The notes beneath the pieces are model-generated. The model was not told the origin of the DNA and made no database searches. It was given only the letters and a program-made list of their open reading frames with translations. DNA of 64,000 nucleotides from an uncultured Oscillospiraceae bacterium. GTDB taxonomy: Bacteria > Bacillota > Clostridia > Oscillospirales > Oscillospiraceae. The stretch is taken from NCBI GenBank assembly GCA_947587485.1, contig CANPXZ010000001.1, forward strand, positions 25,683 through 89,682, given 5' to 3'. Each line of letters starts with the position of its first letter. Positions within the stretch are counted from its first letter, which is position 1. The position numbers and the translations under genes were made by a program. Below are positions 780-43,586 of the stretch, one piece after another.

Positions 780-2531
780 TTAACAAAAAATTTCATGGTC
801 GACCTGGAACTGCAGGTACTCACTGTCATTGAACCGATTGATCCGGAATTTCCCGGCCAGCCGGAACACCTCGTCACTGCCGGCGCCATCCAGTCTGGAA
901 AGAAACTCCGCCCCACCAAACCAGACCACCGTGATCATATGGTCCAGGCTGAGCCGCAAATGCGTCTGGTTCGCGCCCATCAGCTTACGCCCCATCACGT
1001 CCCGAGGCGTAAACAGCAGCGCGAATTCCGGCTCCTCCAACCCCTCACCAAACGGCCGCATCCGGTCGATCTCATGGGCATACTCAAAACAGAGGTCAAA
1101 ATCGTCAGGCCGGCAGACGGAAAAATCATAATTCCCCAGGCACGCACGGCCGTTCATCCCGACCGTATAATATCCGCCTGAACTACCCGAAACGGCCGGC
1201 ATGTTCAGGAATCCCTGCTCCATGGCGTCACGCACGGCGCCCAACTGTTTCTTCGGCACATGCACGCCAAAGGCGTTTTCATGCCCGTCCGCCGTCACGC
1301 CGGGAATCGCGAAACACCCGTTCTTTGTACGCTCAAAGGTCCCGGGCGTACGTCCGGAACCGGAATACCCGTTCCCGTCCGGCCGCATCACCAAACACGG
1401 CTTCCCGTTCAGATCCAGCAGCTTGGACGCCAGCGGACCCAACAAACCTGGTTTTGCGTCGACCAGATAAATATATGGGGCATAGGCCTGTCTGGTATCT
1501 GAAACGAGGTTCTCATACAGGACCTTGATCGCCTCTTTACGCGTCTCGTTATTCTCGATCAGCCACTGGAACAGGTCTTCCCGCTCCCCGTTGCGTTCCC
1601 AGGGGAACCGGGTGTATAATAAGTCGTACAGGAGCCGGATGTCAGACCCCATCCGCTTGATGGAATTGAACAGAGGGCAGTACTTGAAGTCGTAGACCTC
1701 CTCCGTCACGTCCCCGGCCTGGACCTTCCCGCTCCGAAGCATGTGGAAGTGCAGGGCCCGCAAATTCTCAAACGGGGCCGCATAAACGTCCGGGAGCAGC
1801 GCAAGGTCACAGCCGAAAAACTCCGAAACGTCCTGGCAGTCCAGCAACTGGTTGAACAGCTCCACGCTCCGGCGGACCGTGCTGCGCGTGTCATGGATCA
1901 CCGGCATCGCGTCGCCCCGGGAACCCAGCCCCGCAAACAGCACCAATTTCTCGATAAGGGATTTCACAGCCTCATTCCCGGTCAGCTCGCTGTACAGGCG
2001 AACCGCATGGAACGCCATGTACGCGCCGCACACGCCTTTGAACGCGGCATTGGAACCGATCCGGGACGGGTCTACGATCACGGACGCCGACGTACGCATC
2101 GTCTCGATATGGTGGTCCGTCACCAGCACTTCAAGGCCGTGCGACCTGGCCCTTGCGACGGCATCCATCGCTCCGATCCCCACATCGCAGGTGAGCACGG
2201 CATCCGCGTCAGGAAATTCCGTCACGAGCCGCTCGATGTCTTCCGGCGTCATCCCGTAACCACGGTCCGTCTCCGGGGCAAACAGAGAAACATGAAATCC
2301 GAACAGGGACAGCCCGGCATACAGGATGCACCCGGCGGAGATCCCATCCATGTCAAAATCCGGGAACACGACCACGTGTTTGCCGCCGTCATGCAGGCGC
2401 TTCAGGGCCAGCACCAGCGCGTCCTCATCCTGGAACACATAGCTGCCGGCATACAAGTCACGATGGATCCTGGTCAGATATTCATAATTATAACCTTTAT
2501 GCAAAAAGCTCTCACGCAAAAGCCGGTTCAT
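780..2531 (-). CDS. DHH-family phosphoesterase, RecJ-like
   Basis: DFDMDG and VTDHH motifs (VVFPDFDMDGISAG...VLTCDVGIGAMDA...EVLVTDHH). Start chosen at MNRLLRE with GGAGG upstream and downstream of the promoter. Confidence 0.8.
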   Translation of the reverse strand: MNRLLRESFLHKGYNYEYLTRIHRDLYAGSYVFQDEDALVLALKRLHDGGKHVVVFPDFDMDGISAGCILYAGLSLFGFHVSLFAPETDRGYGMTPEDIERLVTEFPDADAVLTCDVGIGAMDAVARARSHGLEVLVTDHHIETMRTSASVIVDPSRIGSNAAFKGVCGAYMAFHAVRLYSELTGNEAVKSLIEKLVLFAGLGSRGDAMPVIHDTRSTVRRSVELFNQLLDCQDVSEFFGCDLALLPDVYAAPFENLRALHFHMLRSGKVQAGDVTEEVYDFKYCPLFNSIKRMGSDIRLLYDLLYTRFPWERNGEREDLFQWLIENNETRKEAIKVLYENLVSDTRQAYAPYIYLVDAKPGLLGPLASKLLDLNGKPCLVMRPDGNGYSGSGRTPGTFERTKNGCFAIPGVTADGHENAFGVHVPKKQLGAVRDAMEQGFLNMPAVSGSSGGYYTVGMNGRACLGNYDFSVCRPDDFDLCFEYAHEIDRMRPFGEGLEEPEFALLFTPRDVMGRKLMGANQTHLRLSLDHMITVVWFGGAEFLSRLDGAGSDEVFRLAGKFRINRFNDSEYLQFQVDHEIFC

Positions 2532-2586
2532 GCCATGTCCTCCATTTCCACATTGGAGGGCGTCCAAACCCTCCTGCATGACATCA

Positions 2587-2615
2587 ATTATAACACAAAA
2601 GAAAACAAGATGCAA
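2587..2615 (-). promoter_or_regulatory. putative promoter TTGCAT-N17-TATAAT
   Basis: -35 at 2610..2615, -10 at 2587..2592. Confidence 0.65.
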
Positions 2616-2712
2616 CAAGTTTATAGGCTTTTAATAAGAAAAATTTCGAGAAAGGATCACAGAAAAGCACACCTGCAGTTTTTTGACATGGTTTTTGAGC
2701 GTGAAAAATCGG

Positions 2713-3170
2713 CGTTACAAGAAAGTGTAATAATCTTTGCACTTTTTAAGTGTGTAACGTTCTCGCGTTACACGCCGTTACAAAATTTTTCAAAAAACTG
2801 TAGAAATTATAGCAGAAATTTTTTTGTAACGCGTGTAACGCCGATTTTGAAAAATTTTAATATAGAAAAAATTTCTTCCTAAATTGACTTTATTTTTAGC
2901 GTTACAAGCGTTACAAAAAAATAAATGATAAAATTCTTACAGTTTTTGGTGACACACGCGTAACGCCCTGTAACGGAGTGTGCAACATAAATGCGAAAAC
3001 TGTAAGAGTTTCTACAGTTTCTTGTAACGTTTTACTTTTCAGGCTCGGGACCCTATGCTAAAAACTGCAGTTGCAAAAAATTTTTCCCGAAAAAAAATCT
3101 GTAACAGTTTCTGCAGTTTTTTCGATTTTGAAACAAAAATGAACAAAAACGAACATCGAAAAATGTAACG
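2713..3170 (+). repeat. iteron-like noncoding region, candidate origin of replication or partition site
   Basis: 12 copies of GTAACG/CGTTAC at 2713, 2754, 2766, 2776, 2826, 2835, 2900, 2909, 2960, 2970, 3024 and 3165. Several are direct pairs 9-10 bp apart. AT-rich, with no convincing ORF, between divergent genes. Confidence 0.65.
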
Positions 3171-3462
3171 TGTGTCACCGGCCGTTTTTGAAACCGTCCC
3201 AAAAACCGGCCCGAAAAACGCCCCCGATCCGGCGTCCTTTCCACCCTTCCGCGAAGCCACATCCGGCCCCAAAACCCGCCCCGCGGCACCTTCCGGACAC
3301 CTGTCATGGCGGGCGGGCCGGCACGTTTATGGCCGAGGCCGGCACGGGAACGGGAGCGCTGACGCGCCCCGTCCCCGTGCAAGAAAAGTGAGGGAACCTG
3401 GAAACGGGTGACCGGAAACACATCAAAATCAAACTTTATATCATAGAGAGGAATGAATAATT

Positions 3463-4809
3463 ATGAAGAAAATGATGAAAGTTTATGCAGCGGCTCTCGC
3501 AGCCACCCTCATGGTGGCCATGCTTGCCGGCTGCGCAAAAGACTATGCGGACGCCGCTCCGACGGCTTCCGGCACGGTCACAACCGAGCCTGCCGTCACC
3601 CAGCCCATCGACGAGAACGACACCCCGATGTCCGGTACGCCCGAGCCGACGGAAGACGTCGACAGCACGGACACGGTAGAAGACGAAGAATACCCTGCAA
3701 TCATCCAGTGGCATTTGGACACAAAATGTGATGACGCCGCCCGCGCAAGATGGGACAAAGGTTGGGCCGCCAAAACAGAAGAAGAGCGCGAAACGACCGT
3801 CGCCTATTTTGAAAAGGAATACGGTGACGAATATCAGGCATACCTGAATGGGGAAGACTACGTTGACCCTAAAACGAAATTTGGTTCCATCGAAGCCATC
3901 GCCGCCCTTGGCGGCAAACAGGCCACCGTGCAGAAAGACACGGAAGAATGCCTGGTTTATATTTTCGATGAGGAAAAGAACCACGGCAACCCTTATGACG
4001 TGACCTGGGACTATGGCAAGGACTATGATTCTTACATCAATGCGGCCGACTGGTCGCTGGTGTTCGACGCCGGGTATTACAAAGCCACGTTCCCGATGCT
4101 GGCACAGCTGTACCACAACGACGACGCGCTGCTCTTAAAGCACTTCCAGACCGTCGGCATCCATGAGGGCCGCCAGGCGTCTGAGAAATTCAACGTTGCC
4201 GCCTATATGGACAACTGTGGCAAGGCACTGCGTGACGCCTTCGGCGACAACTATGAGTGCTATTATATCTACTACCTGCTCCATCAGGACACCGAGTCTG
4301 GCGTAAAGACCACCGGTTCCTATAAGAAGCAGCTTGCGCAGGAGCTCACGGCTATCCAGGAGAGGGAGTTCAAAGCTGTCAACAAATACCGTGAGGAAGT
4401 CGGTGCCCAGGACGTCGAATTTGACTCCGAGCTCGCTGCATTTGCGGGTTACAGGGCCTACATGGACTGCACCAAAGGCTGGGACGCCCATGATGGTATG
4501 TTTTATCTGACGGACAACAACAAGATGCGCAGCATGTTCTTTGGCCCTATCGGAGCCGACATCTACTGTGAAAACAAGTACACTGTTGCCGGACGCGACG
4601 GTTGGGAACACACCGCAGACCAGGGTAAGGGGTATCGTAACTCCGAAGGCCATTATAAGACCATGATAGACACGGACTTCAACTACGTCGGCTGTGGGAA
4701 CTATTATGTGTCCGACCAGGATTACAACTGGGGCGGCGAATATGACACCAACGTCATCACGCTCGACAGCTATGCGGACACCGTAGATACCGCTTACAAC
4801 AATAAGTAA
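3463..4809 (+). CDS. lipoprotein with CAP/SCP-like domain
   Basis: Lipoprotein signal MKKMMKVYAAALAATLMVAMLAGC; CAP-like segment VNKYREEVGAQDVEFDSELAAFAGYRAYMDC. Confidence 0.7.
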   Translation: MKKMMKVYAAALAATLMVAMLAGCAKDYADAAPTASGTVTTEPAVTQPIDENDTPMSGTPEPTEDVDSTDTVEDEEYPAIIQWHLDTKCDDAARARWDKGWAAKTEEERETTVAYFEKEYGDEYQAYLNGEDYVDPKTKFGSIEAIAALGGKQATVQKDTEECLVYIFDEEKNHGNPYDVTWDYGKDYDSYINAADWSLVFDAGYYKATFPMLAQLYHNDDALLLKHFQTVGIHEGRQASEKFNVAAYMDNCGKALRDAFGDNYECYYIYYLLHQDTESGVKTTGSYKKQLAQELTAIQEREFKAVNKYREEVGAQDVEFDSELAAFAGYRAYMDCTKGWDAHDGMFYLTDNNKMRSMFFGPIGADIYCENKYTVAGRDGWEHTADQGKGYRNSEGHYKTMIDTDFNYVGCGNYYVSDQDYNWGGEYDTNVITLDSYADTVDTAYNNK

Positions 4810-13778: not shown

Positions 13779-14441
13779 TCATGATTCTTCGCCGAGCTGC
13801 TTCTTCACGCTCTCGACGACAAGGCGGACATATTTATCAAACACGCCGTTCCGGTTCATGGCGTTGGCCACGTACACGATCGCGTGTATGATGTTCAGGA
13901 ACCCCGGGCCCTTGTCCCGGTCATATGGCACATCGTCCAAAAGTGCCTGGTAGGCGTCGGACATCCCGGCATTGACGAAATTCGTCCATGCGGCCTGGGT
14001 GCCGTTGAGGACAAGGCCCTCATAGCTGCCGCGGTATGCCGAGAAATCGACCTTGAAGGATTTGATCCCGGTCAGGTCCTCGTCCGCCACGGGAAGCGTC
14101 ATGTCATCGCGGAAATCGCTGTACTGCACGTCATCCACCTGCATCAGCGCCTTCTCGATCATGATCGCGTCGTCAAAGCAGGCCCGAAAATCCGCGTTGA
14201 CCAGCAGGCAGACGTTGATCCAAAAACTGTTGTTCAAAAGGTATTTCAGCGTCCTCGTTGTGATCATGGACGTCCCGATGTTGTACACCTTCTGCTGTTC
14301 CGACAGGGTCAGCTCCATGTCCTCCAGGCGGGTCAGGTCGTACACCTGCTTCCCGCTGCTCCCCGGCGGGTACATTTTCTGATAAAACTTCTCCACGGCC
14401 TCCTGCACGAGGGGGTGGAGGCATTCGATACCGGTCGTCAC
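13779..14441 (-). CDS. hypothetical protein
   Basis: 220-aa ORF overlapping the upstream HU-like gene by 4 nt. Confidence 0.7.
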   Translation of the reverse strand: MTTGIECLHPLVQEAVEKFYQKMYPPGSSGKQVYDLTRLEDMELTLSEQQKVYNIGTSMITTRTLKYLLNNSFWINVCLLVNADFRACFDDAIMIEKALMQVDDVQYSDFRDDMTLPVADEDLTGIKSFKVDFSAYRGSYEGLVLNGTQAAWTNFVNAGMSDAYQALLDDVPYDRDKGPGFLNIIHAIVYVANAMNRNGVFDKYVRLVVESVKKQLGEES

Positions 14442-14746
14442 TGGGTATCCCCTCCTTTCTCACCGGCGTTATAGGCGGCCAGCAGCGCCCGGCTCATCTC
14501 GAACTGGAGACGGTTCCGCGCCGGGACGTTGACCTTGGCGCCGGTATAGGTGTTCATGCAGACGCGTGGGGCGGTGACCTTCATCCGGAACTTGCCGAAC
14601 CCTTTGATGTTCACGTCCTCGCCCTTCTCGACATGCTTCAGGATCGCGTCGAACACGAATTCCGTATATGCCTTGGCGGACTGGAAAGAGATCCCCATCT
14701 CGTTCGACAGCTCGTTGATGATGTCACTGGTATTGACTTTATTCAA
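14438..14746 (-). CDS. HU/IHF-like DNA-binding protein
   Basis: MNKVNTSDIINELSNEMGISFQSAKAYTEFVFDAILKHVEKGEDVNIKGFGKFRMKVTAPRVCMNTYTGAKVNVPARNRLQFEMSRAL matches the HU fold (GFGKF; R-x-G-x-N-x-x-T-x-x arm replaced by RVCMNTYTG). TTG start with GGAGGG. Confidence 0.85.
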   Translation of the reverse strand: MNKVNTSDIINELSNEMGISFQSAKAYTEFVFDAILKHVEKGEDVNIKGFGKFRMKVTAPRVCMNTYTGAKVNVPARNRLQFEMSRALLAAYNAGEKGGDTQ

Positions 14747-15700: not shown

Positions 15701-16135
15701 TCATCCTCCCGCGTAATGGAGTATAGTTTCGCGTACCCGCATAGCGATGATGACGTCAAGCGGGCCGACGTGGATCTTGTCCGTTACGGGGCCGTTCTCA
15801 GTCATGCGCCGGGTGGACAGCACCCGGTCGTTCTTGTCATCATTCCATGTCACGTCCCACACGTCGCTCATCATCGGGGACACGGCTGTCCCGTTCCGGG
15901 TGATGACGACGCCGTCGTCATAGACAAGCAGCTGGCACTGCTTGGAGAAGGAAAACGTCCGGTACGGCAGTTCCATCTCTTCCAGCTCGCTGATGTCGTC
16001 TGCATACTTATGGTTCATCGAGATCATGATGGACAAAATGCTGAAAAACAAAAGCATGGACAGCAAAATCTGCAACGCATAACCCCGGATCGCCGAATCG
16101 GACATGATCTGCCACAGGTACGAAAGTTCCATCAT
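15701..16135 (-). CDS. membrane-anchored hypothetical protein
   Basis: N-terminal TM (YALQILLSMLLFFSILSIMISM); overlaps the upstream RHH gene by 4 nt. Confidence 0.65.
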   Translation of the reverse strand: MMELSYLWQIMSDSAIRGYALQILLSMLLFFSILSIMISMNHKYADDISELEEMELPYRTFSFSKQCQLLVYDDGVVITRNGTAVSPMMSDVWDVTWNDDKNDRVLSTRRMTENGPVTDKIHVGPLDVIIAMRVRETILHYAGG

Positions 16136-16317
16136 TCCTTCACAGCCTCCGGCGACGCATCCTGGGTATTCTTCGCTGCCGCATTGCAGTAGGCCAGGAT
16201 GGCACGGCGGATGGCCATGGTCTTGGTCTGGCCCGTACGGGCGCAGTGTTCGGTCAGCATGTCATACACGCTCTTTTCAATGCAGCAGTGTATGATCGCC
16301 TTACGGTTGTCAGCCAT
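16132..16317 (-). CDS. ribbon-helix-helix-like small protein
   Basis: MADNRKAIIHCCIEKSVYDMLTEHCARTGQTKTMAIRRAILAYC; RHH-like and similar to 43380..43586. Confidence 0.65.
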   Translation of the reverse strand: MADNRKAIIHCCIEKSVYDMLTEHCARTGQTKTMAIRRAILAYCNAAAKNTQDASPEAVKE

Positions 16318-30318: not shown

Positions 30319-33300
30319 TCACATATCATCCACCGGGCATTTTGTCTGCTTATCCTCCGGATCATCATCCTGCACACTGTCATTGCTGCCAAGCATGGCA
30401 AACAGGTTGTCATGATACGACGTGTTCCTGGTCGGCACTGGCTTTGCTGCAACAGGTACGAACGGTGCCTCGCTCTCAACAACGACCGTATGCCGGCTGC
30501 TCCCTTGCTGTTCCAACGACGACCGGCTGACCTGTTTGGCCGCCTCACGAAACTGCTCCACAAACTCGGAAGTATGAGCACATTGGGAATTCCGCTCGAT
30601 CTCAGATGCTGTCCGTTCCATCAGCCGTCCCATGAGATAGCCGGTATCGACCTGCCCTGAATAGATCCCGTTGGAATAGATGCCGCGCTTTTCCGTCGCC
30701 AGCTTATCCAGCAATTCCGGATACCCGTCATCCGTCCCGTACATCGACGCATAGCTTGCATCATAATGCTCGTCAGCCGTACGAACCGGATTCTTGACGC
30801 ATGGGCCGCTCTTGGACACCGTCTCATACTCAGACAAGACGGCATTCATGATCGCCATATCGATCTTCGAGAAGCCGGGCTGGCCGATTGAAATCAGGAA
30901 GTTGTCCATCTGTTTCGTGCATTCGTCACGGGACAGCGGCCTTTGGGACTGGACCGTGAACTGGCCGCCATACAGGCTGTCCGGGTCCTTTGATTTCAGG
31001 TCCGCGTCTGCGAACTCCTGCACACATCCGAACCCGACAATGGAATTCAGGATCGTCTTGCCGATGTTCATGTTGGTTGCGCACCGCTGCACGTTCTGCT
31101 TAGCGTCCAGGAAGTTCTGCGTAATCGGACCGCTCATCCGCAGGCCTGTCTCGCCATAGCCCAGCGGCGCCATGATCTTCTGCAGCTTCTGCGCCGCGGC
31201 ACCGCCAAGACCCGTGCCGTCGGATTTGCAGCCCTGCGCGACCAGGTTGGACTCGGACTGCGTGAAGAACCGGGACGGTGCCACGTCACTCTTCGCATTG
31301 TGATGGTCCATCCGGATCTCCGGATCGAAAATGCCCTTGTCCGGCTCAAATTTGCCGGCAACGGACGGCTGTCCGTCATACAGCAACTCGAATTTTCCGT
31401 CAGCGTTTTTCGCAACTGACAGGTGTCCACCACAATCCTCGTGTACGCCTGCAAATTTCAGCAGTGCGTTGAGCTGAGGCTCCTTGCCCTTCTTGGAAAT
31501 ATTGGCGTCAGAAATGATATGGTACAGCGTCTCACAGGCCGACTTGCCGTGTGTCATCAACGACGGGTCGGTCATATACGCCGGCATGTCCCGATAGGCT
31601 GCCGACAGGTGGGAAAAGGTCTCCCGGTCCATCTTGGAAACAGCCTTCAGGTCCAGCCTTGCCGCGGACTGCAGCGGGTCGCCGGTAAACAGCACCTTGC
31701 TGGCCTCGTCAAACTCCTTTAGGATCCCATTCCAGCCGGCGTTCAGAGTCCGGTCATCCCGGGCATTCCTGTCATCCCCGGCATGGAACTTCGCCACGCC
31801 GGTATCGCCAAACATCCCATGCAGGGCCGTGATCTGTTCCATCCGGGCCAGGATGATATTCCGCCCGGCATCCGGGGAAATCTTCCCGGCGGCGACATTT
31901 TCAGCGTCATAAGCGCACTGGCGCAGGTGCTCCAGCATGTTGGCCATGGCTGTCGTGCGGTCCATCTCTTTCCCGATGTCATATCCGCACACCGGCTTGC
32001 CATCCAGTCCGGGCTGCTTCATGTTGTACAGAGCCACGGCATAATCCGCATTTTTGGCGATGAACAGCGGATGCACAAATTCAATGGACACACCGTTCGG
32101 CGTTTCCAGCGTCGTATAATCTGCCTTATGGCACATGTTGCCCTGCATCGTCAGGCGGTCCTTCATGACCTCCCGGGCGCGCGGCCAGAGACGCTCGTAC
32201 GTTTCAGGGTCATCCTTCAACGCGACAGGGTGGGCCGGATAGGACACGCCAACCGTGTCGCCGTCAAAGTCGCCGTCGAAAATCGTCGCGCAGGCCGGAT
32301 TGATCTCCAGGCCCTTGCCATCTTCAGACGTGATCTTGACGCGAAGCGCACGGATGCACCCGGTCGTCTGGCCCGGGCTACGGTTCACCAGGATGAAGTC
32401 ATTGTCCGTCAACGGCTCATACCGCTGGGACATGAACTCATACGTATCAGGGATTTGGGACAGCTCTTCCCTCGAAAGGCTGGCCTTCGGCTTCAAAATG
32501 CCAAGAGACTTTGCCTTCTCAAACGACAGCCCGGCTTCATCGATCTCAAGCGTCGGGTTCCCGTTCCAAACGCAAGTCAGGGAATTCGGTGTCACGGTCC
32601 TATACACGTTCTTTTTGAGCCAGCCGTTCATGTTCTCAAGGGACATGGATTTCTGGTTCGGGCAGTCGGCATAAGTCTCTTTCAGGGTTTTGAGCAGCGC
32701 ATTGGAAGCATTGACGCAATTCCCAGTACTTGCGTACCGCTGGGAACCGTCATGCATCTCACCGATCTTCTCGACCACGGCGCCGGCCAGGATCGATTTG
32801 AAGATCTGGAACTGCTTGCGGTCATCCACCGGGGACACGGAAAGCCCGGTGTCCTGGTCAGGGATCTCACGCGCCGACAGGAAAGCCGGTACAACGCTCT
32901 TCTCTTCACCGTCCAGCATCGCATAGCCCTTCAGGTCAACAAAGGCGGGGACGACAGCCCCGTTCTCGCCTTTGGTCTTCAGGCCGATATCGACGCTGGC
33001 GTTCACAGGCGCCATGTTTTCCGGCAGGACCATGTAAGCGCCGCCGTACCGCCCGACAGAAGCGGTGAACATCCGCTGGATCGCGTTCTCAGATTCCTGC
33101 GGTGTTACGTCGCCAGATTTCGTCCCGGCCGCCAAGGCGAACAGCTTGGAAAAATCACCTTCCCCAAGGGCGTCAACGGCCTCGTTCATAGCTTTCATGT
33201 CAGGGCGCTTGGAAAGGCCTTGTACCAGCTGCTCCGCCATTTTCCCGACATCGACAAAGCGGATGCCGGGCATGTTATCGCACAGGAACGCGCCGTCCTC

Positions 33301-36300
33301 CGGCGTCGGGACCAGGTGCGCGACGGAGTCAGCGTTGCCTTCATTCGGCAGCGGCAGCACATCCGTCACGCGGCGGATGACAAGGCCGGACGTTCCATCG
33401 CCCTCGCTTACGGACGGGTCGGCGTAGAACCCGTTCATCAGGATTTTCCGCTCATATTTCATGATGCGGTCAGGCAGCGTGCTGTCGTTCGCCGTCAGGT
33501 AGGCGAGCAGGTCCCCGGCGTGCTTCGCCTGGATCGCATACATCTCCTGCGCAGCCAGCGCACGGCCCTGCTTGAACGTCACCTCGTTATAATCCTTATT
33601 CTTGTCATCAGACGTGTGCGAATCCGTATAGACCGTGAACACGCCCTTCGCGCCCGGGACAGTGACTCCATTCCCATCCGCGTCACGGATGATCAGGTCA
33701 CCGTTGCCGGCTTCCGTCTGGTCCTGCACGGACATCAAAATGCTCGGATTGGAACGGGTGCAGACGCACACGTTGGTCATGGCAAGGTCGAGGTCCGGGT
33801 TGTCCCGGAACAGGCGCCAGATATCACGCTCCACGCGGTACGCGCCGGCAAACGGTTCAACGCCGGAACTGTCCAGGTAACTGCCAAGGCCGTCCAGCAG
33901 GCCGCCTTCAGCACAAAGGGCATCATGGATCTCGGCTTTCAACGCCTCAGGGTCTCCGGTCACGAACCCGTTCCGGTTTTTCGTGCCAAGCTCGACACAG
34001 CGCAGCTCTTCGAGTTTTTCGCCAACAGTCCGTCCGTCGCTGCACTCGACAGCCAGCAGCGCGGATTTCCAATCCGAGCCGTCGTAAGAGCCCGTGCCGG
34101 CAAACATCTGCATGTACAGGTTCAGCTGTTTGTCCAGCGGGGATTTCAGGGCATCGTCATGGGCCGAGCCATGGTTGAACATATAGGTCTTGAGGTAGTC
34201 GTACACGAATTCGGTCCGGAATTCGTCCTCGTCCTCGATATCCGTGTTGACGATCTTGGACACGATGCCCTTGTTGCCGGACTCCGTATCGCCGATCTTG
34301 TCCCACTTCTGGAGCGGCTGGAACTGGCCGTCCTCGTTGAAATGCCCGAATTTGTTTACCGCCCGCTTCGCGACGATATACCCGTCCTCCATGTTGTACC
34401 CCAGGTTAATCATGGCAAACGTCGCCGGGGAATACATCAGGGATTTTTCCGCGCCATTGGTGCTCAGCTGGGCGCGGTCAACGGCCTGCCCACCCTTGTG
34501 AGGCATAAACTTGGCGTCGATCCCGCCGTTCACGAAATCGAGCACGCCCATGGACACCAAAACTGCAGACGACTCCGGGCCGGCGCCGTTCAGCACGGTC
34601 AGCTTGCCAGTGATCGGGTCGAACTCAACGCTGTCCGTCAAAAATGCCACGGCACCGATGTTGCGGGCCGAACCGGTCAGGATGGAATCGAATTTCGGGT
34701 TCTCGGTCTGCAGGCCGACACGGGACCCCTTGCAGTCGGACCGCCGTATGTTCTTGCGGGAAAACTCCCCGGTGATATTTGCACCATTCATCTGGTCCAG
34801 GTTGAGCAGCATCCCGTACAGGCCAACATTCTCGTCGATGTCGACACGGCTCAGGACGACACGGTTCTCAAACATCTTGGACTGAGTGAACATCAGGTTG
34901 GCGACACGGCGCGCCGCTGCCTCGCCCTCGTGGCTATGGTCGATAAAGATATTGATATACTGACCGCTCCCAGGCTGCGTCTGGTTCGTGACAAAATTGG
35001 ACAGGTACTGGTTCGCAGCCTGGCATTTGGCCTTGTCCTCCAGGATATACGTGTTGGTCCGGTAGCACTTGGACAGGGAGTTCGCGCTCACATTGGCGAA
35101 AAACACCGCCTGCATCAGCTCCGGTTTCGACGCCGTGCCGTGGTGCGTGGCATGGTAGATCCCCAGGCACCGGTCCAGGTTGTCCAGCACAGACATCTGG
35201 TAGCTGAAGATCTTGACCCGGTCACTCATATTGAGGCCGGAATGGTTATACCCGTCGTAGTTCTGCACCTTGCCGGAAAGCCCGTAGTACCGGTTCATCA
35301 CGACGGCCTCTTCTTTCCGCACGCCATGGATCGAAGATTCCGTGTCAAGCGGGCCGAAGGCGACCTCGTTGCGCATCTCACCCGTTACAGGATCGATCAC
35401 GACCTCGCTGGTCACATGTACGTATTTTTGTTCCGTAATGACGGTCCCAGTCGCGTCGCGAAGAAACACGCCGGTGGCGTCCCGGGAAGGGACCTCGATC
35501 TCCTGCGCAGTCAGGTCATCCGCCGTCGTATCCTCAACGACCGGCCGGATCCACGCCTGCCGTTCCGTAAACGGACCCAGTTTCAGGACCGTGTCGCCGG
35601 ACTGATTCTGGTAATACAGCATGCCGGTTTCCGTCATGAACAGGTTCGACGGGTCATAGCCGTTCCCGTCCGTTTGCCGCAGGAAGTTGTGGACGCGGGT
35701 CATTGCCGCAAACTGCAGCGGATGGGTCGCCTTCCAGACGGCACAGCGGTACGTATCATAGTCATTCGGGTCATAAAGCCCATCGGGGCCGCGGCGATCG
35801 CGTGTCATCCACTCAAACGTCAGGTCGACGCCGGGATTCTGCACCGCAAATGTGGCGTCAAACCATGCCCGCTCGTCACGGGTCGACTGGAAGTTCGAGG
35901 CATCCTCGTCAGGTTCCAGCGTCTCGTTCACGGACACCGGGTCCTGCCCCTCTTCCGTTGCCGCCTCAGACAGGTAGGCCCCATTCTCGTCACGAAATGC
36001 CTGACGCATCTCGCTGCGCTCATTGCTATTGGAGGTCCTGGAATTGGTCGCGGGCCAGCGGACGAACGACCGAACATTGAAGGCCTCCGGTGCATAGATC
36101 TGAACGGTGATGGACCGGGCTGCGGCCAAGCCAATCTGGTTGGAGACCGTCGGATCACCGACATAGGCAACCTCGTTCGTGTATGAAAGCAGCCGTAACA
36201 AATTGTCGTAATCATCCGGCATGATCCCGCTGGACGCATGCCGGCACATGTTGGCCTTGATCAGCACGTTGCCATTCTCGGTATAACCATAGACCTGATC

Positions 36301-38682
36301 CAAAGCGCCGTTCAGCGTGGGACTGTCAGGATCAGAAATGTCGTCCAGCATCTCGCGGATCACGCGCTCAGAGTATTCACGGTCCAGCGTCGGGGCGGCT
36401 TCCAGGACTTCGCTGGAGAGTGTGTTGTCACGCTGGTTCAGCAGGCTGACGTCGTTCGCAAGGCTGCTTGTCACATCCAGGACCAGTTTCCCAAGATAGG
36501 CGTGGTAAACATGCCGGGCGGCCGTATAGCCGGTCACGTCGGCTCCATAACTGGTATTCAATTCCCGGGCCGCCAGAGCTTCCAGGCGCTTGGAAAGCTC
36601 CCGTTCCACATCGGAGGCCGTACTGCCGCGCCGCATCCGGTTCGCCAGCATATAAACGGCATCGCCGAACGTGAAATCGGAATCGTCCGGCTTGGTGCAT
36701 CCCTCGCATTCTTCGGCGATAAACGTTTGGATGATGGACACCATCCGCTCCCGGTTCTCCGGCCGCAGGAAACCCGCCCGGGCCACGGCCTTCGAGGCTT
36801 CCATGTCGTCCTGCAGGGCTTTGATGACCTTCTCGGTGTTGACGGTGCCGGACGGCGTGTTGATGAATTCAGACAGGTCCGCGGCGCCGGTATTGCCGAC
36901 GCTCCGTGCCATCTTCACGACGCTCACGTCACGCCCAGCCATTTGCACCGGGTGGTCCCAGGCGTCAAACGTCTTCCGCATCCCATCGACCATTTCACGG
37001 GTGATATTGTGCATCTGGACGTACTCGTTCGACGTCACGCTGTTCGTGCCGTTGGTCTCAGCGTCAGCGGAAGCGCGGAATGTCCGGTTCGTAATGGAAT
37101 ATGGGTCATAAGACCCGGACACGATGTCACCGGCCACAGGTTGGACCGCAAGATTCTTCGGAATGTAGTCCAGGTACGGATAAAACGAGAAGAACCGCGT
37201 CGGATTGGATTTGGCCCGGTTGATATCATGGGTATGCTCGCCCGTAACGTATAAAAGGGGCAGGAACCCGCCGGTCTCCCGCTCCACATAGGTCTGTGGC
37301 GCAAAATGGATCTCAAACTCATGGGAGGACATCTTGTCACGCACGGTCGAGAACACATGTTCGATATAATCAAAGTAATACCTGGCATTGGCGTTGACCG
37401 CCTCGGCTCCGTTGATCTGCGGATCGCCAAACACCGTCTGACCGAACTGCACGCCGCCGATCTGCCGGTCAAACATCGAAAACGCGACGGACAGATCCTC
37501 AGGCTCCAGCTCACGCTGGGAATACTTGTCCATCAATTCCGCCATCCGCCAGCCGAACTGCAGCTTCATGTCGGAACCGACCTTCTGCGGGTCATAAGCA
37601 TAGACGCGGACACGCTGCTGTTCGGTCCGCAGGACTTCACCGGTGGACTCGTACTGGCCGTTCTCGCCGGAATTGTCATACATCTCCGTTGTCACGGTCT
37701 GGACACGCTCATAACTCGCCCCGCGGACGAAATTCTCGTCGTTCCGGTCATGGACAATGAACATGTCGCCCTGGGCGCCAAACATGTCGCCAACGGACCG
37801 CGTCAGGTATTCACCATGGAACCGGGAGCTCGCCACCTGCAGCAAAGACTTCTGCGTGTCGAACTGCAGCACGGCATTCATGTTCCTGCTCCCGGAAAAC
37901 TGCTTCACCATGGAATACAGGCCAAGCCGCCCCGCCGCAGGAGTCCCGGACCGGCGCAGCGACCGGAACTCAGGCATCAGCGGGCTGATCTTCAGGCAGT
38001 CGTGCGCCCGCCCCGGCCTCATCCCGATGTCACGCACAAAACCGCCATCGGAAGTCTGAAGCTGTTCATCCGGCGCATGGTAGGCGTACAGGTCATGGTC
38101 CGTATCGGCAAAGCTCTGCCCATCGGCCGTCACGCCGGCCGTCAGGTCGAACGACCGGACAGACCGGACGACCCTGGACAGGACGCTGTCCGGGTCCTGG
38201 GGATCCAGGATCCGCTGGAACTCTGCTTCAGTCATGGCGGCTTTCGTTTCATCGTTGAGCTTGACGCTGCCATCCGAGTTGCTGACCAGGTGCTTCATGA
38301 CCATGTTCTGGAGAGCCTCGGAATTCAGGATCGCCTGCCGCACGAACCCAGGCACGACGTCGCCGGTCAGGGAATCTCCACTCACAGTCCCTGTTCCGTC
38401 GGCATTCGGGACGGTGAACCGGCTGATCAGGTTCTCGTTCTCCCCTTCCGTCACATACTCAATAAGGCCCTGGTCCGAAGCCCGCATCGCCATCTGGTCG
38501 CGGGCGGCCCCAAGACCGTCAGGATGGATGGTGTTGATGTCACGAGACCCTTCGATCCCATAATCATGCAGCATCTCCTTCAGGACGATATAGTAAACCA
38601 TGTCGGCCTGAAGTTTGTTCCGGATATGCCGGTCCTTCGTAGCGCCGCCATGGCCATATTCCCTCAAATCGTCTAAAATCAT
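30319..38682 (-). CDS. putative single-chain RNA polymerase, fused beta-like and beta'-like double-psi beta-barrel subunits
   Basis: Beta-type: AMINLGYNMEDGYIVAKRAV, LQKWDKIGDTESGNKGIVSKI. Beta'-type: ILVNRSPGQTTGCIRALRVKI...INPACATIFDGDFDGDTVGVSYPAH (cf. LLNRAPTLHRLGIQAFEP...[21 protein letters not shown]). Tentative later block MSGPITQNFLDAK (cf. GEPGTQLTMRTFH). Start moved to ATG 38682 (GAGGAGG RBS). Confidence 0.88.
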   Translation of the reverse strand: MILDDLREYGHGGATKDRHIRNKLQADMVYYIVLKEMLHDYGIEGSRDINTIHPDGLGAARDQMAMRASDQGLIEYVTEGENENLISRFTVPNADGTGTVSGDSLTGDVVPGFVRQAILNSEALQNMVMKHLVSNSDGSVKLNDETKAAMTEAEFQRILDPQDPDSVLSRVVRSVRSFDLTAGVTADGQSFADTDHDLYAYHAPDEQLQTSDGGFVRDIGMRPGRAHDCLKISPLMPEFRSLRRSGTPAAGRLGLYSMVKQFSGSRNMNAVLQFDTQKSLLQVASSRFHGEYLTRSVGDMFGAQGDMFIVHDRNDENFVRGASYERVQTVTTEMYDNSGENGQYESTGEVLRTEQQRVRVYAYDPQKVGSDMKLQFGWRMAELMDKYSQRELEPEDLSVAFSMFDRQIGGVQFGQTVFGDPQINGAEAVNANARYYFDYIEHVFSTVRDKMSSHEFEIHFAPQTYVERETGGFLPLLYVTGEHTHDINRAKSNPTRFFSFYPYLDYIPKNLAVQPVAGDIVSGSYDPYSITNRTFRASADAETNGTNSVTSNEYVQMHNITREMVDGMRKTFDAWDHPVQMAGRDVSVVKMARSVGNTGAADLSEFINTPSGTVNTEKVIKALQDDMEASKAVARAGFLRPENRERMVSIIQTFIAEECEGCTKPDDSDFTFGDAVYMLANRMRRGSTASDVERELSKRLEALAARELNTSYGADVTGYTAARHVYHAYLGKLVLDVTSSLANDVSLLNQRDNTLSSEVLEAAPTLDREYSERVIREMLDDISDPDSPTLNGALDQVYGYTENGNVLIKANMCRHASSGIMPDDYDNLLRLLSYTNEVAYVGDPTVSNQIGLAAARSITVQIYAPEAFNVRSFVRWPATNSRTSNSNERSEMRQAFRDENGAYLSEAATEEGQDPVSVNETLEPDEDASNFQSTRDERAWFDATFAVQNPGVDLTFEWMTRDRRGPDGLYDPNDYDTYRCAVWKATHPLQFAAMTRVHNFLRQTDGNGYDPSNLFMTETGMLYYQNQSGDTVLKLGPFTERQAWIRPVVEDTTADDLTAQEIEVPSRDATGVFLRDATGTVITEQKYVHVTSEVVIDPVTGEMRNEVAFGPLDTESSIHGVRKEEAVVMNRYYGLSGKVQNYDGYNHSGLNMSDRVKIFSYQMSVLDNLDRCLGIYHATHHGTASKPELMQAVFFANVSANSLSKCYRTNTYILEDKAKCQAANQYLSNFVTNQTQPGSGQYINIFIDHSHEGEAAARRVANLMFTQSKMFENRVVLSRVDIDENVGLYGMLLNLDQMNGANITGEFSRKNIRRSDCKGSRVGLQTENPKFDSILTGSARNIGAVAFLTDSVEFDPITGKLTVLNGAGPESSAVLVSMGVLDFVNGGIDAKFMPHKGGQAVDRAQLSTNGAEKSLMYSPATFAMINLGYNMEDGYIVAKRAVNKFGHFNEDGQFQPLQKWDKIGDTESGNKGIVSKIVNTDIEDEDEFRTEFVYDYLKTYMFNHGSAHDDALKSPLDKQLNLYMQMFAGTGSYDGSDWKSALLAVECSDGRTVGEKLEELRCVELGTKNRNGFVTGDPEALKAEIHDALCAEGGLLDGLGSYLDSSGVEPFAGAYRVERDIWRLFRDNPDLDLAMTNVCVCTRSNPSILMSVQDQTEAGNGDLIIRDADGNGVTVPGAKGVFTVYTDSHTSDDKNKDYNEVTFKQGRALAAQEMYAIQAKHAGDLLAYLTANDSTLPDRIMKYERKILMNGFYADPSVSEGDGTSGLVIRRVTDVLPLPNEGNADSVAHLVPTPEDGAFLCDNMPGIRFVDVGKMAEQLVQGLSKRPDMKAMNEAVDALGEGDFSKLFALAAGTKSGDVTPQESENAIQRMFTASVGRYGGAYMVLPENMAPVNASVDIGLKTKGENGAVVPAFVDLKGYAMLDGEEKSVVPAFLSAREIPDQDTGLSVSPVDDRKQFQIFKSILAGAVVEKIGEMHDGSQRYASTGNCVNASNALLKTLKETYADCPNQKSMSLENMNGWLKKNVYRTVTPNSLTCVWNGNPTLEIDEAGLSFEKAKSLGILKPKASLSREELSQIPDTYEFMSQRYEPLTDNDFILVNRSPGQTTGCIRALRVKITSEDGKGLEINPACATIFDGDFDGDTVGVSYPAHPVALKDDPETYERLWPRAREVMKDRLTMQGNMCHKADYTTLETPNGVSIEFVHPLFIAKNADYAVALYNMKQPGLDGKPVCGYDIGKEMDRTTAMANMLEHLRQCAYDAENVAAGKISPDAGRNIILARMEQITALHGMFGDTGVAKFHAGDDRNARDDRTLNAGWNGILKEFDEASKVLFTGDPLQSAARLDLKAVSKMDRETFSHLSAAYRDMPAYMTDPSLMTHGKSACETLYHIISDANISKKGKEPQLNALLKFAGVHEDCGGHLSVAKNADGKFELLYDGQPSVAGKFEPDKGIFDPEIRMDHHNAKSDVAPSRFFTQSESNLVAQGCKSDGTGLGGAAAQKLQKIMAPLGYGETGLRMSGPITQNFLDAKQNVQRCATNMNIGKTILNSIVGFGCVQEFADADLKSKDPDSLYGGQFTVQSQRPLSRDECTKQMDNFLISIGQPGFSKIDMAIMNAVLSEYETVSKSGPCVKNPVRTADEHYDASYASMYGTDDGYPELLDKLATEKRGIYSNGIYSGQVDTGYLMGRLMERTASEIERNSQCAHTSEFVEQFREAAKQVSRSSLEQQGSSRHTVVVESEAPFVPVAAKPVPTRNTSYHDNLFAMLGSNDSVQDDDPEDKQTKCPVDDM

Positions 38683-38732
38683 CTCTAGTTCCTCCTCACA
38701 ATCTTTCATGATCGGCAAAACCGTCTCCATAT

Positions 38733-43379: not shown

Positions 43380-43586
43380 TCAAGCCTCTTCCTTGTCACC
43401 CTCGATATCGGCGTCCGGACCGCAGTACTGGAGAATGGCCCGCTCGATCGCCTTCGTCTTGGACTGCCCGGTCTGCTCACAATGAGCCAACAGCGCCTCA
43501 TACGCCCCCTGCTCGATGTAAGCGCTGACGAGGGTACCGACCTTCTTTTTACGTTCAGGACGCCCATTCTCAACGTTGTTGCCCAT
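43380..43586 (-). CDS. ribbon-helix-helix-like small protein
   Basis: KKVGTLVSAYIEQGAYEALLAHCEQTGQSKTKAIERAILQYC; paralogue of 16132..16317. Confidence 0.65.
   Translation of the reverse strand: MGNNVENGRPERKKKVGTLVSAYIEQGAYEALLAHCEQTGQSKTKAIERAILQYCGPDADIEGDKEEA

What the first reader, a model, noticed from the sequence alone, without database searches (positions are those of the whole stretch)
2640..3460. Iteron-array intergenic region: candidate oriV or centromere
Twelve GTAACG/CGTTAC hexamers occur in ~460 bp, often as direct pairs one helical turn apart (2766/2776, 2826/2835, 2900/2909, 2960/2970). They are interleaved with a second motif family (ACTGTAGAAA, CTGTAAGAGTTTCTACAG, CTGCAGTTTTTT), all in an AT-rich ORF-free gap between divergent transcripts. 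No Rep or ParAB gene is recognisable in the window, so the cognate protein is unknown.
Basis: partly seen in the sequence, partly recalled or inferred. Interest (0 to 1): 0.78.

Follow-up and report, generated by a model that had tools for sequence, protein, structure and literature searches.

The report
Twin palindromic origin-like site on plasmid
A large gut-bacterial plasmid carries two copies of an AT-rich, mirror-symmetric control region studded with twelve identical seven-base protein-binding sites whose positions are almost perfectly conserved in related plasmids; it is most likely where the plasmid's own copying machinery is loaded or controlled, but that has not been tested.

Summary
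Twelve GTAACG sites (expected about 0.4) lie in a ~510-bp element at 2670-3180, a ~400-bp imperfect palindrome. A second copy (83% identical) lies 95 kb away on the same 184-kb contig, a large MobL/TraG conjugative element. A related rabbit-gut plasmid has both copies at orthologous places; two unrelated ICE-like contigs carry one copy each. Across all six copies the twelve TGTAACG heptads are 98% invariant (48% outside), at rigid mirror-image distances from the centre. The 58-bp AT-rich centre is shared by the two copies of one plasmid but not by orthologues (concerted evolution).

Best explanation: a protein-assembly site for plasmid maintenance, most likely an origin or origin-control site. 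The plasmid encodes a P4/SaPI-family primase-helicase, PrimPol-like primase and DNA polymerase. ParA, RepA_N, Rep_3 and integrases were not found on the contig, and the two dyads are its only strongly AT-rich regions. Initiation is not shown; GC skew does not switch at either copy. Rivals: an operator for the plasmid's small ribbon-helix-helix proteins, or a ParMR centromere.

The parts
2670..3180 (.). Whole conserved element (copy 1): ~400-bp imperfect palindrome (2670-3075) plus a right-hand extension (3076-3180)
   Evidence: 83% identical second copy at contig C1:123657-124157; self-palindromic match; six-copy alignment; one of only four low-GC stretches on the 184-kb contig, GC down to 0.31
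2713..2719 (-). Heptad TGTAACG, about -154 from dyad centre
   Evidence: present in all six copies
2753..2759 (+). Heptad TGTAACG, about -114 (no mirror partner)
2766..2782 (-). Heptad pair (10-bp spacing), about -101/-91
   Evidence: one base differs in the two G466 copies
2825..2840 (+). Inner left heptad pair (9-bp spacing), -42/-33
   Evidence: invariant
2841..2899 (.). AT-rich centre between the inner heptad pairs; 93% identical between the two copies of this plasmid, 45-48% identical to the related plasmid and ICE copies
2900..2915 (-). Inner right heptad pair (9-bp spacing), +33/+42
   Evidence: invariant
2959..2975 (+). Heptad pair (10-bp spacing), +92/+102
   Evidence: first unit reads CGTAACG in copy 1 only
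3023..3029 (+). Heptad, +156
3164..3170 (+). Heptad in right extension, +297
2726..2741 (.). Motif 2 palindrome TGTA-N8-TGCA (-137)
2799..2814 (.). Motif 2 variant TGTA-N8-AGCA (-63.5), overlapping an extended -10 box
2806..2814 (-). TGCTATAAT, perfect extended -10 box, at the same place in all six copies; a heptad pair falls over its -35 region
   Evidence: use as a promoter is inference
3001..3016 (.). Motif 2 palindrome TGTA-N8-TACA (+138.5)
3100..3115 (.). Motif 2 palindrome TGTA-N8-TGCA (+238)
780..2618 (-). RecJ-like DHH exonuclease gene, left neighbour; a promoter-like site of its own (TTGCAT-17-TATAAT at 2615-2587) lies outside the element and is conserved in the related plasmid
   Evidence: Pfam DHH/RecJ_OB, TIGR00644, promoter read from sequence
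3463..4809 (+). CAP-domain lipoprotein gene, right neighbour; goes with the element onto two ICE-like contigs
16132..16317 (-). Small ribbon-helix-helix (RHH) protein, 61 aa, one of the plasmid's RHH paralogues (candidate site-binding protein)
43380..43586 (-). Small RHH protein, 68 aa, another paralogue
14438..14746 (-). HU-like DNA-binding protein (possible architectural partner)
   Evidence: Pfam PF00216 E 1.4e-19

Best explanation
The element is a cis-acting nucleoprotein assembly site for maintenance of a large conjugative plasmid, most likely a replication origin or origin-control site, present as a twin pair. Proposed working: a plasmid-coded initiator, best candidate the P4/SaPI-family primase-helicase at C1:145741-147312, binds the mirror-image heptads on both sides of the AT-rich centre and opens it. 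The plasmid's small RHH proteins, and whatever binds the TGYA-N8-TRCA palindromes, compete or co-bind to set copy number, and the two copies may pair. Shown: the sites, their symmetry, two copies, extreme conservation, AT-richness, co-residence of the replication genes. Inferred: which protein binds, that replication starts here, and copy pairing.
For: Twelve heptads, 82 of 84 columns invariant in six copies against 48% outside, at the same distances from the centre within about 3 bp: selection for one rigid protein-DNA assembly. Both copies are kept at orthologous places in two plasmids. The two dyads are the only strongly AT-rich stretches (GC 0.31 and 0.28) of a ~57%-GC 184-kb contig. The contig encodes a P4-family primase-helicase (TIGR01613 E 7e-58; DUF5906/D5_N/Pox_D5; closest solved structure 7ola), a PrimPol-like primase, a DNA polymerase, an exonuclease and RecJ. 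ParA, RepA_N, Rep_3, tyrosine and serine recombinases were not found on it. SaPI Rep and SCCmec Cch2, of the same helicase class, recognise origins or putative origins made of short iterons (PMC7581432). The helicase is 85% identical in the two plasmids, in keeping with invariant sites. RHH proteins bind origin iterons on pMBL6842 (PMC7848731) and accompany a PrimPol/SF3 replicon on pRN1 (PMC4234260). Both left neighbours have promoter-like sites of their own outside the element, so it is not simply their promoter.
Against: GC skew does not change sign at either copy. No DnaA box lies in copy 1 or copy 2 with one mismatch allowed. The element is not beside the primase-helicase gene; SaPI and SCCmec origins lie directly downstream of theirs (here that DNA is coding). 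Two origins on one plasmid are unusual. One copy on each of two ICE-like contigs sits in bins without a close helicase homologue. Conservation of an extended -10 box inside the element also fits a regulatory region. Nothing here shows binding or initiation, and the contig is not closed, so other candidate sites may be missing.
Confidence: 0.42

Rival explanations
1. Operator: a complex regulatory switch. Small plasmid-coded RHH proteins bind the heptads, a second regulator binds the TGYA-N8-TRCA palindromes, and together (perhaps by looping, as RcoLS20 does on pLS20) they control the conserved promoter inside the element, which would fire leftwards towards recJ (copy 1) and the 845-aa gene (copy 2).
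For: Perfect extended -10 box TGCTATAAT at the same place in all six copies, with a heptad pair over its -35 region and motif 2 over the -10. RHH proteins are typical repressors; several paralogues are on the contig and the most conserved (87%) is coded about 3 kb downstream of copy 2, another about 2.7 kb downstream of copy 1; RHH fold supported by Foldseek neighbours CopG, SvtR, Arc and ORF56 (low-confidence model). pLS20 operators are clusters of an 8-bp motif with looping (PMC4207663).
Against: recJ and the 845-aa gene each have a separate conserved promoter-like site outside the element; the RHH genes also appear to have their own promoters (read by eye). In copy 2 the gene on the right points at the element. 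The left -10 box is kept on ICE-like contigs where the gene behind it differs and lies antisense.
Confidence: 0.27
2. Centromere: the heptads are partition sites (parC/parS-like) bound by ParR or another RHH protein and moved by the plasmid's ParM-like actin; two copies serve as two centromeres.
For: An actin-like ParM/AlpC homologue (PHROG 'partition protein' E 8e-19; relatives on pGKT2 and Lactobacillus plasmids) is preceded by a ParR-like gene, the AlpA-AlpC order noted for pGKT2 (PMC4446434). Copy 2 lies about 3.5 kb upstream of these genes. ParR sites elsewhere are 10-20-bp direct repeats (PMC9426499); here the pairs are 9-10 bp apart.
Against: The array is not directly upstream of the par genes: a gene, a terminator-like hairpin and a promoter-like site intervene. 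The ParR-like protein is only about 30% identical between the two plasmids, different also in its N-terminal strand, while the heptads are invariant. Copy 1 is 90 kb from par. No ParA on the contig, so an omega/delta-type system is not supported.
Confidence: 0.17
3. Single-strand or RNA hairpin element: the long palindrome acts as a folded single strand (pRN1-type stem-loop origin, single-strand origin, or structured RNA).
For: As one strand the element folds far better than shuffles (z -10.5); pRN1, with PrimPol/SF3 helicase and an RHH protein, appears to use a stem-loop origin (PMC4234260).
Against: No covariation support across six copies (covariation term +1.4; 8 of 137 pairs with two-sided change, most in the centre). 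Symmetry is carried by invariant short motifs, as for double-strand protein sites. Rfam shows only matches far below gathering score, mostly plant miRNA precursors, as long hairpins give.
Confidence: 0.07
4. Recombination or integration site (attP arm sites, resolution site).
For: The two copies evolve in concert in the centre, and homology between plasmid and ICE copies stops at the outer edge of the palindrome.
Against: No tyrosine or serine recombinase on the contig; recombination between two direct copies 95 kb apart would split the plasmid.
Confidence: 0.05

Closest known systems
Origins of SaPI Rep / SCCmec Cch2 / phage P4 alpha (P4-family SF3 helicase initiators)
   Same: Short (5-8 bp) iterons; helicase of the same TIGR01613/D5 class is coded on the element (P4 details from own knowledge)
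   Different: Here the array is one 400-bp palindrome in two copies with a second palindromic motif interleaved, and it is not next to the helicase gene; binding untested
pRN1 replicon of Sulfolobus (ORF56 RHH + ORF904 PrimPol/helicase + stem-loop origin)
   Same: RHH protein, PrimPol-like primase and SF3 helicase on one element with a palindromic noncoding site
   Different: A 184-kb bacterial conjugative element; symmetry held by protein-site-like motifs, no covariation of paired bases
parS of pSM19035 (omega heptads)
   Same: 7-bp non-palindromic units in direct and inverted orientation, several arrays per plasmid, small RHH proteins coded on the plasmid
   Different: omega heptads are contiguous (at least four needed); here at most two per run with 2-3 bp gaps; no ParA on the contig
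parC of ParMRC plasmids (R1, pB171, pSK41, pCW3)
   Same: Plasmid has ParM-like and ParR-like genes; repeats about one helical turn apart
   Different: Not adjacent to the par genes; two distant copies; mirror-symmetric rather than direct-repeat array
RcoLS20 operators OI/OII of pLS20
   Same: Clustered short motifs in opposite orientation in a divergent intergenic region of a Gram-positive conjugative plasmid
   Different: Different motif; exact mirror symmetry and a second copy 95 kb away; no evidence for overlapping divergent promoters

Membership tests
Iteron origin with P4/SaPI-type SF3 initiator | Array of short repeated sites in noncoding DNA | tested here: met
   12 heptads, shuffles mean 0.41
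Iteron origin with P4/SaPI-type SF3 initiator | AT-rich (unwinding) region with the iterons | tested here: met
   GC 0.31 and 0.28 at the two copies in a ~57%-GC contig; only strongly AT-rich stretches
Iteron origin with P4/SaPI-type SF3 initiator | P4-family primase-helicase coded on the same replicon | tested here: met
   TIGR01613 E 6.8e-58, DUF5906/D5_N/Pox_D5, 7ola E 1.9e-60
Iteron origin with P4/SaPI-type SF3 initiator | Array directly downstream of the initiator gene (SaPI, SCCmec) | tested here: not met
   DNA downstream of the gene is coding; dyads are about 22 kb and 117 kb away
Iteron origin with P4/SaPI-type SF3 initiator | Skew change or other sign of bidirectional initiation | tested here: not met
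   Skew negative on both sides of both copies; unidirectional replication not excluded
Iteron origin with P4/SaPI-type SF3 initiator | Supports autonomous replication; initiator binds the iterons | not testable with these tools
   needs experiment
DnaA-dependent iteron oriV (Rep_3/RepA_N type) | Rep_3 or RepA_N gene on the replicon | tested here: not met
   none on contig C1; the contig is not closed
DnaA-dependent iteron oriV (Rep_3/RepA_N type) | DnaA boxes | tested here: not met
   none in either copy at up to one mismatch
ParMRC centromere parC | ParM-like and ParR-like genes on the plasmid | tested here: met
   ParM-like; ParR-like assignment by position and N-/C-terminal resemblance read by eye
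ParMRC centromere parC | Repeats directly upstream of the par operon | tested here: not met
   copy 2 is separated by a gene, a terminator-like hairpin and a promoter-like site
ParMRC centromere parC | ParR and sites co-conserved | tested here: not met
   ParR-like protein about 30% identical, heptads invariant
omega-type RHH parS | At least four contiguous heptads plus a ParA partner | tested here: not met
   at most two per run; no ParA on contig
Bidirectional promoter/operator | Contains the promoters of both flanking genes | tested here: inconclusive
   Left genes have external promoter-like sites; one conserved extended -10 inside; activity unknown
RHH-protein operator | Site-specific binding by the plasmid's RHH proteins | not testable with these tools
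   RHH paralogues present; fold supported

The most novel reading that the evidence does not exclude
A previously undescribed class of twin, mirror-symmetric plasmid origin: a conjugative plasmid lineage with its own phage-like replisome starts or controls replication at two co-evolving 400-bp palindromic heptad arrays that pair with each other, with the fast-evolving centre as the plasmid-specific identity tag; ICEs that carry a stray copy tap into, or interfere with, the plasmid's maintenance system.
Probability: 0.22. Interest if true: 0.78.

Novelty: new variant of a known kind. Interest (0 to 1): 0.56.

Why it matters
This contig belongs to a family of large conjugative elements in gut Oscillospiraceae-type bacteria on which none of the common replicon types tested was found. 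A 510-bp site with twelve invariant protein-binding sites is a direct handle for finding its initiator or partition protein, for building replicating vectors for these hard-to-engineer bacteria, and for recognising related elements in metagenomes. The pattern (invariant heptads, centre shared within but not between plasmids, stray copies on ICEs) makes copy pairing, incompatibility and hijacking testable.

Tried and rejected
DNA similarity to annotated plasmids and phages: none. Element in 99 relatives: own genome only. 845-aa neighbour and ParM-like protein in about 400 genomes each: own genome only. IMG/VR protein scans with ParM-like, PrimPol-like and RecJ-like queries: no relatives. Heptad arrays elsewhere (Bacteroidaceae and Alistipes MAGs, Bacillus phages, other contigs) share the unit but not the geometry and were judged separate. 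Integrase arm sites (suggested by one phage locus, L015): rejected, no recombinase on the contig. RNA/hairpin reading: strong single-strand folding but no covariation; Rfam matches are far below threshold. An origin beside the primase-helicase gene: none, the DNA there is coding. alpS-like repeats directly upstream of the par genes: no obvious array seen by eye. AlphaFold of the RHH protein is low confidence (pLDDT 67), so its fold matches are support, not proof. Two papers on the SaPI origin were not held.

Full report
OBSERVATION. All twelve GTAACG/CGTTAC hexamers exist at the stated places. Shuffles of the same 541 bp give a mean of 0.41 and at most 3. The conserved unit is the heptad TGTAACG. 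The second motif is TGYA-N8-TRCA; 8 of the contig's 17 matches lie in the two copies of the element.

CONTEXT. The window is C1:25683-89682 of a 184-kb contig in an incomplete MAG. Skew is uniformly negative along the contig and does not follow gene strand. The contig carries a MobL relaxase and a TraG/VirD4 coupling protein, topoisomerase and sortase, an actin-like ParM homologue and small RHH proteins, HU, a type I-C CRISPR-Cas set, and a phage-like replication set: PrimPol-like primase, P4-family primase-helicase, exonuclease, DNA polymerase, RecJ; the protein at C1:126159-126971 looks like an SSB by eye only. AAA_31/ParA, RepA_N, Rep_3, tyrosine and serine recombinases occur in the MAG on other contigs or not at all, but not on this contig. 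It is therefore a large conjugative element, most likely a plasmid, without the common replicon types tested. Circularity was not shown.

SECOND COPY AND PALINDROME. Searching the genome with the element returned C1:123657-124157 (83%) and matches of each copy to the reverse complement (68-71%). Copy 2 lies between an 845-aa gene and a LysM gene, with the ParR-like and ParM-like genes to its left and the replication genes to its right.

RELATIVES. An exact-pattern scan of 85,462 species genomes found the same geometry in three rabbit-gut Oscillospiraceae MAGs only. One (G466) holds a syntenic plasmid, in two contigs, with both copies at orthologous positions (recJ/CAP and 845-aa gene/LysM). 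The other two (G465, G467) hold one copy each next to the CAP lipoprotein gene on ICE-like contigs (VirD4-like, SNF2/methylase-like and recombinase-like proteins judged from sequence only).

CONSERVATION. In the six-copy alignment 82 of 84 heptad columns are invariant against 48% of the rest. Measured from the dyad centre, heptads stand at about +-33, +-42, +-91.5, +-101.5 and +-155 in every copy, plus single ones at -114 and about +299; motif 2 stands near -137 and +238 in every copy and near +-63.5 and +138 in most. The 58-bp centre is 93% identical between the two copies of this plasmid and 83% between those of G466, but 45-48% between the plasmids. This is concerted evolution, by conversion or co-adaptation; the data do not say which.

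PROMOTERS. The left neighbours recJ and the 845-aa gene have conserved promoter-like sites of their own outside the element. Inside the left arm a perfect extended -10 box (TGCTATAAT) is kept in all six copies; the right arm has only degenerate versions. The element may be transcribed, but is not simply the promoter of its neighbours.

WHICH PROTEIN. Candidates are (a) the P4-family primase-helicase, 85% identical in the two plasmids; SaPI Rep recognises a short-iteron origin with its C-terminal domain and SCCmec Cch2 binds a putative one (PMC7581432), while the phage P4 comparison and the reading of 7ola as a SaPI protein rest on my own knowledge; (b) the RHH proteins, of which the one near par is 87% identical, with precedents for an RHH protein on origin iterons (PMC7848731) and beside a PrimPol/SF3 replicon (PMC4234260); (c) ParR, about 30% identical and so a poor match to invariant sites. 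The adaptor-before-actin gene order of the par genes matches pGKT2 (PMC4446434).

JUDGEMENT. Strong, rigid, mirror-symmetric conservation plus unique AT-richness on a replicon with its own initiator-class helicase favours an origin or origin-control site (0.42). An RHH operator (0.27) and a ParMR centromere (0.17) remain open, and the classes can overlap, as in pSM19035 where parS sites are also operators (PMC9499535). Against an origin: no skew switch, no DnaA box, and not beside the helicase gene. No binding or replication was tested. I do not file it as a member of any family; it works like an iteron-type maintenance site and is a new variant of that kind.

Noticed in passing
L020:6600-6850, L024:5870-6210, L029:7490-7740, L031:4990-5230, L034:2370-2610 (Bacteroidaceae MAG RGIG6166): Dispersed intergenic repeats: inverted runs of 2-9 TGTAACG heptads at 9-10 bp spacing flanking a long AT palindrome, on five contigs of one genome; looks like a MITE- or REP-like family. 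Similar runs in Alistipes MAG RGIG3003 (L022, L025, L036, L047).
   Followed up: partly
L016:6540-6700, L027:3690-3820, L052:1450-1580: Three phage-contig or Bacillus-type genome loci with seven TGTAACG sites in nearly the same arrangement; in L016 they lie just upstream of a terminase-small-subunit-like gene.
   Followed up: partly
contig C1:264-646 (outside the window, L005): Third conserved noncoding stretch (82% in both ICE-like contigs) with a TGTA-N8-TACA palindrome and a CTGCAG box but no heptads; on the ICE-like contigs it follows the CAP lipoprotein module.
   Followed up: partly
contig C1:124490-124705 (L011): Two tRNA-T-arm-like sequences downstream of copy 2, conserved at 80% in the related plasmid; ARAGORN calls no tRNA there.
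   Followed up: partly
contig C1:7764-15742 (L005): Type I-C CRISPR-Cas genes (Cas3, Cas5, Csd1, Cas7) beside a long array of ~67-bp-period repeats on the same element.
   Followed up: no
contig C1:132536-133843 (L011:12536-13843): Reverse transcriptase gene (RVT_1 E 4e-18) within the replication half of the element.
   Followed up: no
window 30319-38730: A 2803-aa ORF with a weak match to RNA polymerase Rpb1 domain 2 (E 6e-7), next to the TraG-like coupling protein.
   Followed up: no
NC_018580 (pGKT2), NZ_CP140265, NZ_CP109461: Large actinobacterial plasmids carry homologues of both the RecJ-like and the ParM-like protein of this element, hinting at a shared ancient backbone.
   Followed up: partly
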